Source: Geitlerinema sp. PCC 7407
GTDB lineage: Bacteria; Cyanobacteriota; Cyanobacteriia; PCC-7407
Reading direction: 5' to 3'
Length of the DNA stretch: 64,000 nucleotides
NCBI RefSeq assembly: GCF_000317045.1
Contig: NC_019703.1
Location: 1,414,501-1,478,500, forward strand
The translations under genes and the position numbers were made by a program. The first letter of the stretch is position 1, and every line of letters begins with the position of its first letter. Of the stretch, positions 8,300 to 46,182 are shown in pieces. The notes beneath the pieces are model-generated. The model had not been told where the DNA came from. It saw only the letters and a list, made by a program, of their open reading frames with translations, and searched no databases.

Positions 8300-8383
8300 T
8301 GCGGAACCCGGGACTTGAACCCGGAAGTCTTTGCAGACACTAGAACCTGAATCTAGCGCGTCTACCAATTCCGCCAGTTCCGC
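8300..8383 (-). tRNA. tRNA-Leu (anticodon CAG)
   Basis: Read on the reverse strand, it starts GCGGAAC and closes with the paired GTTCCGC plus discriminator A. The anticodon stem CTAGA/TCTAG encloses the loop TTCAGGT, giving CAG. A long variable arm typical of class II tRNA-Leu and the T-loop GGTTCAAGTCC are present. CCA is not encoded. Confidence 0.95.
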
Positions 8384-10091: not shown

Positions 10092-10967
10092 ATGACGTTC
10101 CCAAGACAAGCACTCGTGGGTTTGACGGCGAATCAGTTTCGCCACCCTCTGGATTTGGAAGCAACCCGGGCGCTTCAGCAGCTTCCAGGACTTGATTTGG
10201 CGATCCGGAGCCTGCTTGGGCCTGTGGCAGAGCAGTTTTTCTACCTAGACAATATTGCTTCGAGTATTCGGGTGGGCAAAGATCAGTTGCCAGACTTGCA
10301 CCATTTGCTGCTTGAAGCCGCTGCGATTTTGGATCTAGAGCCGCCAGAGCTGTATTTGCGACAGCATCCGGTGCCCAACGCGTACACGTTTGCCATGCGG
10401 GGTCGGCAGCCGTTTATGGTGATTCATACGTCGCTTTTGGAGTTGCTCAATCCTCCAGAAATCCAGGCGGTCATGGCTCACGAACTGGGCCATCTCAAGT
10501 GTGACCACGGGGTGTACCTGACGCTGGCCAATTTATTGGTGCTGGCGGCGGGGCAGTTGCCGAGCTGGGGAGCGGCGATCGCCCAAAGCCTCCAGGCCCA
10601 AATGATGGAATGGCTCCGGTGTGCCGAGTTTACGTGCGATCGCGCAGCCCTGCTGGTGGTCCAGGATCCCAAGATTGTGGCATCGTTGCTCATGAAGCTC
10701 ACGGGCGGCTCGCCTAGCCTTGTCTCCAAGCTGAATGTGGACGCTTTTCTAGCCCAGGCTCGCTCCTATGAAGACCTCAGCCACACCCAGCTGGGCCAAC
10801 TCCTCAAGCAGGCCCACGCGACCAACTTGACCCATCCCGTGCCGGTGCTGCGGGCCAAAGAAATCGATCGCTGGGCTACGAGCCAACTTTACCAATCCCT
10901 TTTACAAAAGCGTTCCATGCCCTATAATGGGGAAGCTTCATCCAAGGGCGGATGGCGAAATTGGTAG
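10092..10967 (+). CDS. M48 family zinc metalloprotease
   Basis: A 291-residue Ste24/HtpX-type endopeptidase. The zinc site HELGH is at about residues 130-134, within EIQAVMAHELGHLKCDHGVY, and a downstream EFTCDRAALLV supplies the third ligand (Glu) and the conserved Asp. A weakly hydrophobic segment (LTLANLLVLAAGQLPSW) follows the zinc helix, as in cyanobacterial members that are probably peripheral or membrane-linked. The ATG at 10092 matches the conserved N-terminus TFPRQALVGLTANQF. Its last seven codons and TAG stop lie inside the tRNA-Leu gene at 10946, and the promoter of that tRNA lies inside this coding sequence. Confidence 0.9.
   Translation: MTFPRQALVGLTANQFRHPLDLEATRALQQLPGLDLAIRSLLGPVAEQFFYLDNIASSIRVGKDQLPDLHHLLLEAAAILDLEPPELYLRQHPVPNAYTFAMRGRQPFMVIHTSLLELLNPPEIQAVMAHELGHLKCDHGVYLTLANLLVLAAGQLPSWGAAIAQSLQAQMMEWLRCAEFTCDRAALLVVQDPKIVASLLMKLTGGSPSLVSKLNVDAFLAQARSYEDLSHTQLGQLLKQAHATNLTHPVPVLRAKEIDRWATSQLYQSLLQKRSMPYNGEASSKGGWRNW
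10901..10928 (+). promoter_or_regulatory. Sigma70-type promoter for tRNA-Leu(CAA), inside the M48 gene
   Basis: TTTACA at 10901-10906 (one mismatch to the -35 consensus), a 16-nt spacer and a perfect TATAAT at 10923-10928. Predicted transcription start is about 10935, some 11 nt before the mature tRNA 5' end. Confidence 0.75.
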
Positions 10968-11027
10968 ACGCATCACACTCAAAATGTGACGGCTTCGGCC
11001 GTGAGAGTTCGAGTCTCTCTCCGCCCA
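10946..11027 (+). tRNA. tRNA-Leu (anticodon CAA)
   Basis: The acceptor GGGCGGA pairs with TCCGCCC plus discriminator A. The anticodon stem TCACA/TGTGA encloses CTCAAAA, giving CAA. The variable arm GGCTTCGGCC region is class II, and the T-loop is AGTTCGAGTCT. CCA is not encoded. The 5' 22 nt overlap the end of the upstream protease gene. Confidence 0.95.
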
Positions 11028-11086: not shown

Positions 11087-11326
11087 ATGGCTCGGTATCT
11101 CAAGCGTTGGGAGTCGCCCCGCAAAGAGGGTCGCAACGACAAAGGACGAGGGGGCTCTGCGCGTCAGCGCCAGCTGAAAAAGCGTGAACAGCAACTGCGC
11201 AAACGCCTGCAAAAAGAAGGGGATGCTTCACCAGACAGCGCTTCGCCTCCACACCCCACAGACCCAACAAAAAATCAAACAAACAAAAGGGAGAGAATCG
11301 AACAAGTTCTCTCCCTTTTGTTTTAG
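11087..11326 (+). CDS. Small basic hypothetical protein running through a terminator-like hairpin
   Basis: A 79-residue, very basic frame (RYLKRWESPRKEGRNDKGRG, then RQRQLKKREQQLRKRLQKEG, probably a charged helix). Codon choice in the first 50 codons resembles that of neighbouring genes. No strong Shine-Dalgarno sequence is seen. The stop codon (11324-11326) comes immediately after the T-run of a perfect 13-bp terminator hairpin, so either the hairpin is not an efficient terminator or the last part of the frame is fortuitous. No family recognised; it may be a chance frame in the trailer of the tRNA. Confidence 0.4.
   Translation: MARYLKRWESPRKEGRNDKGRGGSARQRQLKKREQQLRKRLQKEGDASPDSASPPHPTDPTKNQTNKRERIEQVLSLLF
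11285..11323 (+). terminator. Rho-independent terminator downstream of tRNA-Leu(CAA)
   Basis: Perfect 13-bp inverted repeat (arms AAAAGGGAGAGAA and its complement, 9-nt loop) followed by TTTTGTTTT. It is positioned to end the transcript carrying tRNA-Leu and the small frame at 11087. Confidence 0.85.
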
Positions 11327-46089: not shown

Positions 46090-46182
46090 CAAATCGTTCA
46101 TCCCTTTAGAGAAAATCCGTAAACCTAAGTCAGTTTCTCCGTAAGGGACGGAAGTAGGGAATTACCCCGAAGGAACGCGCCT
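46090..46182 (+). ncRNA. Glutamine riboswitch (glnA RNA motif)
   Basis: The conserved parts of the glnA glutamine aptamer are present in order: CGTTCATCC at the 5' side, a GAGAAA.../...TTTCTC arm, GGACGGAAGTAGG, and CCGAAGGAACGCGCC at the 3' side. P1 pairs CGTTC (46095-46099) with GAACG (46173-46177). It lies 39 nt before the DUF4278 start, and a CACCTC segment (46191-46196) could pair with the Shine-Dalgarno GGAGG at 46209-46213, suggesting control of translation. In other cyanobacteria this aptamer turns on gene expression when glutamine is high. Confidence 0.87.

What the first reader, a model, noticed from the sequence alone, without database searches (positions are those of the whole stretch)
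10901..11027. tRNA-Leu(CAA) gene nested in the 3' end of a metalloprotease gene
The M48 coding sequence ends at 10967, 22 bp inside the tRNA, so its last residues are read from the tRNA acceptor and D-arm. The tRNA promoter (TTTACA-16-TATAAT) lies within the protease gene. Protease transcripts reading through would contain the tRNA, and processing of the tRNA 5' end would cut the protease mRNA within its last codons, removing the stop codon and creating a possible tmRNA target.
Basis: partly seen in the sequence, partly recalled or inferred. Interest (0 to 1): 0.5.

Follow-up and report, generated by a model that had tools for sequence, protein, structure and literature searches.

The report
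Protease tail born from tRNA gene
In cyanobacteria the last few amino acids of a protease are read from the beginning of a transfer-RNA gene, and where the tRNA gene has since moved away the protease keeps the same amino acids, so a piece of tRNA seems to have become a useful piece of protein.

Summary
The M48 protease stop (TAG, 10965-10967) is the D-loop TAG of tRNA-Leu(CAA) (10946-11027). Among 201 distinct cyanobacterial orthologues, 122 end at the same tRNA position; 119 of these end in WRNW and 3 in WWNW. In 57 more the tRNA no longer overlaps, yet the protein still ends in W-[RKS]-[NHD]-W (GGWRNW in 46). Their codons have drifted: Arg takes six forms, the stop all three, both Trp never change, and the -10 box that lay in the same stretch is gone (90/122 versus 0/57). 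Parsimony on three trees gives 4 changes for the motif and 21 for the overlap. So the peptide is under protein-level selection, and it almost certainly arose by reading into the tRNA. Relocated tRNAs often carry a fossil protease tail upstream, which suggests the junction was duplicated. The tail is predicted disordered and is best read as a C-terminal docking motif (inferred). Closest precedent: tRNA-Sec nested in selB (Mukai 2021). Overlap loss is frequent and motif loss rare, so regulation is unlikely to be the main reason the tail persists.

The parts
10092..10967 (+). M48-family metallopeptidase gene (HELGH active site); ATG at 10092, TAG at 10965-10967
   Evidence: ZMPSTE24/BepA-like fold. 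The start codon is the first ATG before the conserved region; TTG 10068 is the longest reading
10946..11027 (+). tRNA-Leu(CAA) gene, no encoded CCA
   Evidence: cloverleaf also forms in read-through RNA
10946..10967 (+). overlap: tRNA nt 1-22 (acceptor 5' strand, D-stem, part of D-loop) = last codons of the protease
10947..10964 (+). codons GGC GGA TGG CGA AAT TGG = C-terminal GGWRNW, conserved with and without the tRNA
10965..10967 (+). stop codon TAG supplied by the conserved D-loop GGTAG
   Evidence: TAG in 122 of 122 overlapping; TAA 25, TAG 24, TGA 8 in 57 decoupled
10901..10906 (+). -35 like TTTACA of the tRNA promoter, within the protease coding sequence
10923..10928 (+). -10 box TATAAT, read in frame as Tyr-Asn of the protease linker
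   Evidence: a -10-like box starts 23 nt before the tRNA in 86 of 122 overlapping loci
10914..10946 (+). codons of the predicted disordered, sequence-variable linker before the motif
   Evidence: pLDDT < 50 for residues 275-291; entropy

Best explanation
Early in the main cyanobacterial radiation an M48 protease gene already lying just upstream of tRNA-Leu(CAA) lost its stop codon and was extended through the tRNA promoter into the tRNA, ending at the D-loop TAG. The extension gave the enzyme a flexible tail ending in Gly-Gly-Trp-Arg-Asn-Trp. That tail became useful, most likely as a C-terminal short linear motif that docks the protease to a partner, substrate or membrane surface, and it has been kept by selection on the protein since. 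The same DNA serves as tRNA, promoter and protein tail in most lineages. In about 20 lineages the two were separated, at least in part by duplication of the junction: the protease kept the motif codons and lost the promoter, while the tRNA kept the promoter and a decaying copy of the tail. Shown by comparison: the overlap, its wide conservation, protein-level selection on WRNW, repeated decoupling. Predicted: disorder of the tail. Inferred: direction of origin (strong), docking role (weak).
For: 201 distinct orthologues: 122 overlapping (both Trp and the Asn of WRNW in 122 of 122, Arg in 119), 57 decoupled but ending W-[RKS]-[NHD]-W, 22 neither. Decoupled codons: Arg CGA15 CGC13 CGG12 CGT10 AGA4 AGG1, Asn AAT40 AAC15, stop TAA25 TAG24 TGA8, Trp TGG 57 of 57 twice. 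Parsimony changes per site in the decoupled set: WRNW positions 1+2 1.1, third positions of R and N 19; linker 19.1 and 22.9 (Fisher p 4e-9, changes treated as independent). Internal control: TATAAT upstream of the motif in 90 of 122 overlapping, 0 of 57 decoupled (p 6e-24). Three trees: motif 4 changes, overlap 21. Basal lineages L027/L030 have the protease stop 37 nt before the tRNA, so adjacency precedes overlap. Fossil tails upstream of relocated tRNAs: 14 of 25 match the overlapping-tail profile better than shuffles at p < 0.05 (readings). Tail pLDDT < 50.
Against: No protein, transcript or phenotype data. The motif was lost in three lineages (L016; L212; the L022/L077/L078/L203 clade) and is absent from basal ones, so it is dispensable in some settings. 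In the 122 overlapping cases the tRNA alone would conserve the letters, and free tRNAs also spell GGWRNW, so only the decoupled cases carry the argument. The fossil-tail test fails in 11 of 25 loci, and no tRNA remnant follows the stop in decoupled genes (best 7 of 12 nt). Some deep branches of the tree are weakly supported.
Confidence: 0.85

Rival explanations
1. Regulatory switch: the overlap is kept because RNase P maturation of the tRNA from read-through transcripts cuts the protease mRNA before its stop, giving a nonstop mRNA that goes to tmRNA, so that tRNA processing limits protease output.
For: Geometry is right: the cut at 10945/10946 removes the last codons and the stop; the tRNA folds in the read-through RNA; the same model was proposed for selB/selC (PMC8124441, read).
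Against: The overlap has been lost about 20 times while the motif stayed in most of these, so coupling is dispensable. The tRNA has its own promoter-like site, so its supply need not depend on read-through. No transcript data.
Confidence: 0.2
2. Pure accident: the stop was lost, the next in-frame stop lies in the D-loop, and the tail is meaningless; it looks conserved because the tRNA is conserved.
For: Free tRNA-Leu(CAA) genes also spell GGWRNW; the linker is variable.
Against: 57 distinct orthologues, in at least 9 coded families, keep the motif without the tRNA, with synonymous codons shuffled and non-synonymous positions held.
Confidence: 0.05
3. Protein first: WRNW was already the protease C-terminus and a tRNA-Leu gene later came to lie on it.
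For: The motif changes only 4 times on the tree and is older than the decouplings.
Against: It needs a chance match of some 20 nt to the tRNA 5' end. Basal lineages lack the motif, and two of them (L027, L030) have the tRNA directly downstream.
Confidence: 0.05
4. The tail is a stability signal (degron or anti-degron) or a membrane-interface anchor (two Trp around an Arg) instead of a partner-docking motif.
For: Terminal position, predicted disorder, two invariant Trp.
Against: No direct evidence for or against; it shares the conserved-peptide part of the best explanation.
Confidence: 0.35

Closest known systems
tRNA-Sec (selC) nested in the selB reading frame, Alphaproteobacteria and others (Mukai 2021, PMC8124441)
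   Same: Bacterial ORF reads into a same-strand tRNA gene; overlap conserved over a clade but lost in some members; remnant tRNA sequence left in the ORF in some; Dyella/Luteibacter have the stop inside the tRNA
   Different: There the protein and tRNA belong to one pathway, and the paper (parts 1 and 2 of 3 read) does not show the C-terminal letters to be selected apart from the tRNA. Here a housekeeping tRNA and an unrelated protease overlap by 22 nt, across a class, and the peptide outlives the overlap in many lineages
Mitochondrial tRNA/protein gene overlaps (e.g. Armadillidium cox1/tRNA-Lys, as cited in PMC8124441)
   Same: tRNA inside or at the end of a coding sequence
   Different: Compact organelle genomes; no decoupled copies with retained peptide known to me (recall)
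M48 metallopeptidases (ZMPSTE24, BepA, HtpX)
   Same: Same catalytic fold (Z 11.4 to ZMPSTE24, 11.1 to BepA) and HExxH
   Different: Smaller, no Pfam domain besides PF01435, tRNA-derived tail; below the NCBIfam HtpX cutoffs
Plastoglobule protease PGM48 (AT3G27110)
   Same: M48 protease of chloroplasts (passages of PMC12587418); possible relative (recall)

Membership tests
Peptidase family M48 | PF01435 above gathering score and HExxH motif | tested here: met
   71.8 bits vs 20.3; HELGH at residues 130-134 invariant in 41 sequences
Peptidase family M48 | M48 catalytic fold | tested here: met
   AlphaFold mean pLDDT 81; ZMPSTE24 Z 11.4 over 192 residues, rmsd 3.8
HtpX equivalog | Score above NCBIfam equivalog cutoff | tested here: not met
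   best 68.6 bits vs cutoff 341
Bacterial tRNA genes overlapped by an ORF (selB/selC kind) | Same-strand coding sequence running into a complete tRNA gene | tested here: met
Bacterial tRNA genes overlapped by an ORF (selB/selC kind) | Overlap conserved over many species | tested here: met
   122 of 201 distinct orthologues
Bacterial tRNA genes overlapped by an ORF (selB/selC kind) | Whole tRNA inside the ORF (strict nesting) | tested here: not met
   stop at tRNA nt 20-22
Bacterial tRNA genes overlapped by an ORF (selB/selC kind) | tRNA processing represses the protein via nonstop mRNA | not testable with these tools
   no transcript data; a hypothesis also in PMC8124441
PGM48 orthologues | Orthology and shared C-terminus | not testable with these tools
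   no plant sequences in the collections

The most novel reading that the evidence does not exclude
A housekeeping tRNA gene gave a protein a new functional C-terminal motif. In lineages where the two still overlap, RNase P acts as a switch between two enzyme forms, full length with WRNW, or cut before the motif and tmRNA-tagged, so that tRNA maturation sets the amount of active or docked protease. Lineages that needed to escape the switch duplicated the junction.
Probability: 0.2. Interest if true: 0.9.

Novelty: new variant of a known kind. Interest (0 to 1): 0.77.

Why it matters
It is a clean natural case of a non-coding RNA gene becoming protein sequence. The tRNA explains where the peptide came from, and about 20 separate losses of the overlap act as repeated natural experiments showing that the peptide is then mostly kept for its own sake. 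It makes the birth of a short protein motif testable, and it is a warning for annotation pipelines that reject or trim ORFs overlapping a tRNA. It also points to a strongly conserved functional tail, apparently unstudied, on a widespread cyanobacterial protease.

Tried and rejected
Sequence search of the PDB with the protein gave no match at E <= 0.01; only the fold comparison placed it. A remnant of the tRNA 3' part after the stop of decoupled genes was looked for and not found. I considered that ARAGORN had missed split or odd tRNAs in the decoupled loci; the DNA after the stop is not tRNA-like. The tRNA was searched in 31 genomes (27 with decoupled proteases, 4 with the overlap, the window's own included): 31 of 31 have a match. 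In G203 and G264 it is partial only (query nt 1-41 and 17-82). Four genomes (G015, G114, G127, G271) have a second, partial match of nt 1-41 or 1-45 elsewhere; those were not looked into. Other genes in the genome ending in this pattern: 4 matches of TGGMGNAAYTGGTRR against 1 for the reversed control. One is the overlap; one falls, by coordinates, in tRNA-Leu(CAG) of the window; the other two were not looked into. Literature: ten searches in the open-licence PMC library found the selB/selC paper and nothing in their listings on this protease overlap or on WRNW as a protein motif; most subscription papers are not held. Of papers, I read parts 1 and 2 of 3 of PMC8124441, passages of PMC12265555 and PMC12587418, and listings only for the rest. 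D-loop length: overlapping tRNAs 131 of 131 have the same length, free ones vary (class B 25 standard, 1 short; C/D 1 standard, 9 short; tRNA-only loci 39 standard, 9 short, 1 long). The tRNA-only set partly repeats genomes already counted and the overlapping set is in frame by definition, so I give this little weight.

Rows dropped: of 220 loci, 204 had distinct protein readings. L064 (no stop within the contig), L080 (frame broken early) and L081 (partial) were left out before the tree, giving 201. Of 254 genomes with a match, 168 were fetched and classed; the other 86 were not read. 134 of 388 genomes had no match at E <= 1e-60 and their proteases were not studied. Class B was widened from W[RK].W to W[RKS][NHD]W so as to count L204 (WSNW).

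Full report
What is there. The window (G000:C1:1414501-1478500) is from a cyanobacterium, judged by the named records that hold the protease. A 291-residue M48 metallopeptidase gene (10092-10967) runs into tRNA-Leu(CAA) (10946-11027) and ends at the D-loop TAG, tRNA nt 20-22. The only promoter-like site found nearby, TTTACA-16-TATAAT, lies in the protease gene and its -10 box is read in frame as Tyr-Asn. The tRNA is single copy by a search at E <= 1e-8. In the read-through RNA the cloverleaf is part of the predicted minimum-energy fold.

Relatives. By class: overlapping 131, motif without overlap 62, neither 26, no stop 1. After removing identical readings and three unusable ones, 201 remained: A overlapping 122, B decoupled 57, C tRNA nearby but protease stops before it 7, D neither 15. 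In class A the stop always lies at the same D-loop TAG; the residue before Trp-Arg-Asn-Trp is Gly in 105, Glu in 11, Lys in 5 and Asp in 1, and the three exceptions to WRNW are WWNW, where the tRNA itself differs.

Why class B matters. In class A the tRNA alone could keep the letters: relocated, free tRNA-Leu(CAA) genes also spell GGWRNW. In class B there is no tRNA under the codons; the DNA after the stop is not tRNA-like (best 7 of 12 nt). The Arg codon has become CGA, CGC, CGG, CGT, AGA or AGG; the stop TAA, TAG or TGA; the glycines any of four codons; but both Trp codons are unchanged in 57 of 57, Arg is kept in 55 and Asn in 55. By parsimony on the class B tips, first and second positions of WRNW changed 1.1 times per site and third positions of Arg and Asn 19 times, against 19.1 and 22.9 in the linker just before. 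The -10 box, which sits some 20 nt upstream of the motif and whose letters matter as a promoter, is the internal control: TATAAT is found in 90 of 122 class A and 0 of 57 class B genes, and Tyr-[NDSH] in the tail in 113 of 122 and 1 of 57. So what remains after decoupling is the peptide, not the nucleic-acid signals.

History. Three trees built without the tail (LG quick, FastTree, mixture quick) each give 4 changes for the motif and 21 for the overlap. Rooted on L220, this reads as one gain of motif and overlap, about 20 losses of overlap and three losses of the motif (L016; L212; the clade of L022, L023, L077, L078, L203). There are 24 maximal class B clades; parsimony joins some of them. 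Without a tree, class B occurs in 9 coded families, 7 of which also hold class A. Basal L027 and L030 have the tRNA, with a TATAAT of its own, 37 nt after the protease stop, so the neighbours were adjacent before they overlapped. In 25 class B loci the tRNA is still downstream within the DNA fetched, 78-1445 nt away. In 14 of these 25 the DNA before the relocated tRNA matches the class A tail profile better than shuffles at p < 0.05, for example L158 reading YLLQNQKIAYNRKVAPKGGWRNW. This fits duplication of the junction with division of labour, but 11 of 25 show no such trace and other routes may exist.

The protein. AlphaFold on 41 aligned sequences gives a mostly confident M48 core (mean pLDDT 81, pTM 0.82; blocks near residues 141-170 at 60-70) and residues 275-291 below 50. 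Nearest solved folds are ZMPSTE24 (Z 11.4), a putative Zn peptidase 3c37 (11.2) and BepA (11.1). The tail length from the conserved Trp261 is 31 residues in 85 of 122 class A and 33 of 57 class B proteins, otherwise 23 to 47. A disordered, variable linker with an invariant end is the usual look of a short linear motif; that it docks to a partner is inference.

RNase P cleavage would separate the protease mRNA from its stop codon, and tmRNA rescue would follow from established knowledge. The same hypothesis was published for selB/selC (PMC8124441). It is not excluded here. Because the overlap is lost often and the motif rarely, I do not think it is why the tail is kept.

Known or new. [quoted passage not shown] In ten searches of the open PMC library I saw no report of this protease overlap, nor of a tRNA-born peptide shown to be kept without its tRNA. 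I rate it a new variant of a known kind, with high interest.

Noticed in passing
11087-11326: Small ORF after the tRNA (MARYLKRWESPRKEGRN...); a similar M..KRWE reading lies after the tRNA in 38 of 123 class A loci, so it looks like a conserved uncharacterised gene. No Pfam hit.
   Followed up: partly
46093-46181: Glutamine riboswitch (glnA leader, RF01739), 55.6 bits.
   Followed up: no
8300-8383 (minus strand): Second leucine tRNA, tRNA-Leu(CAG), 2.6 kb from the first.
   Followed up: no
L205, L210, L211: Overlapping loci in which a tRNA change turns the protein end into GEWWNW, a possible trade-off between tRNA and protein.
   Followed up: partly
L080: Hormoscilla sp. GM7CHS1pb protease reading frame is broken early while the tRNA remains; pseudogene or assembly error.
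   Followed up: no
L022, L078 (class C), L252, L266: tRNA-Leu(CAA) genes with a D-loop one base shorter are common where the protease does not overlap (9 of 10 class C/D tRNAs) and absent where it does (0 of 131).
   Followed up: partly
G000:C1:2822381-2823211: A second M48 paralogue (36% identity); the match ends at query residue 269, before the tail.
   Followed up: no
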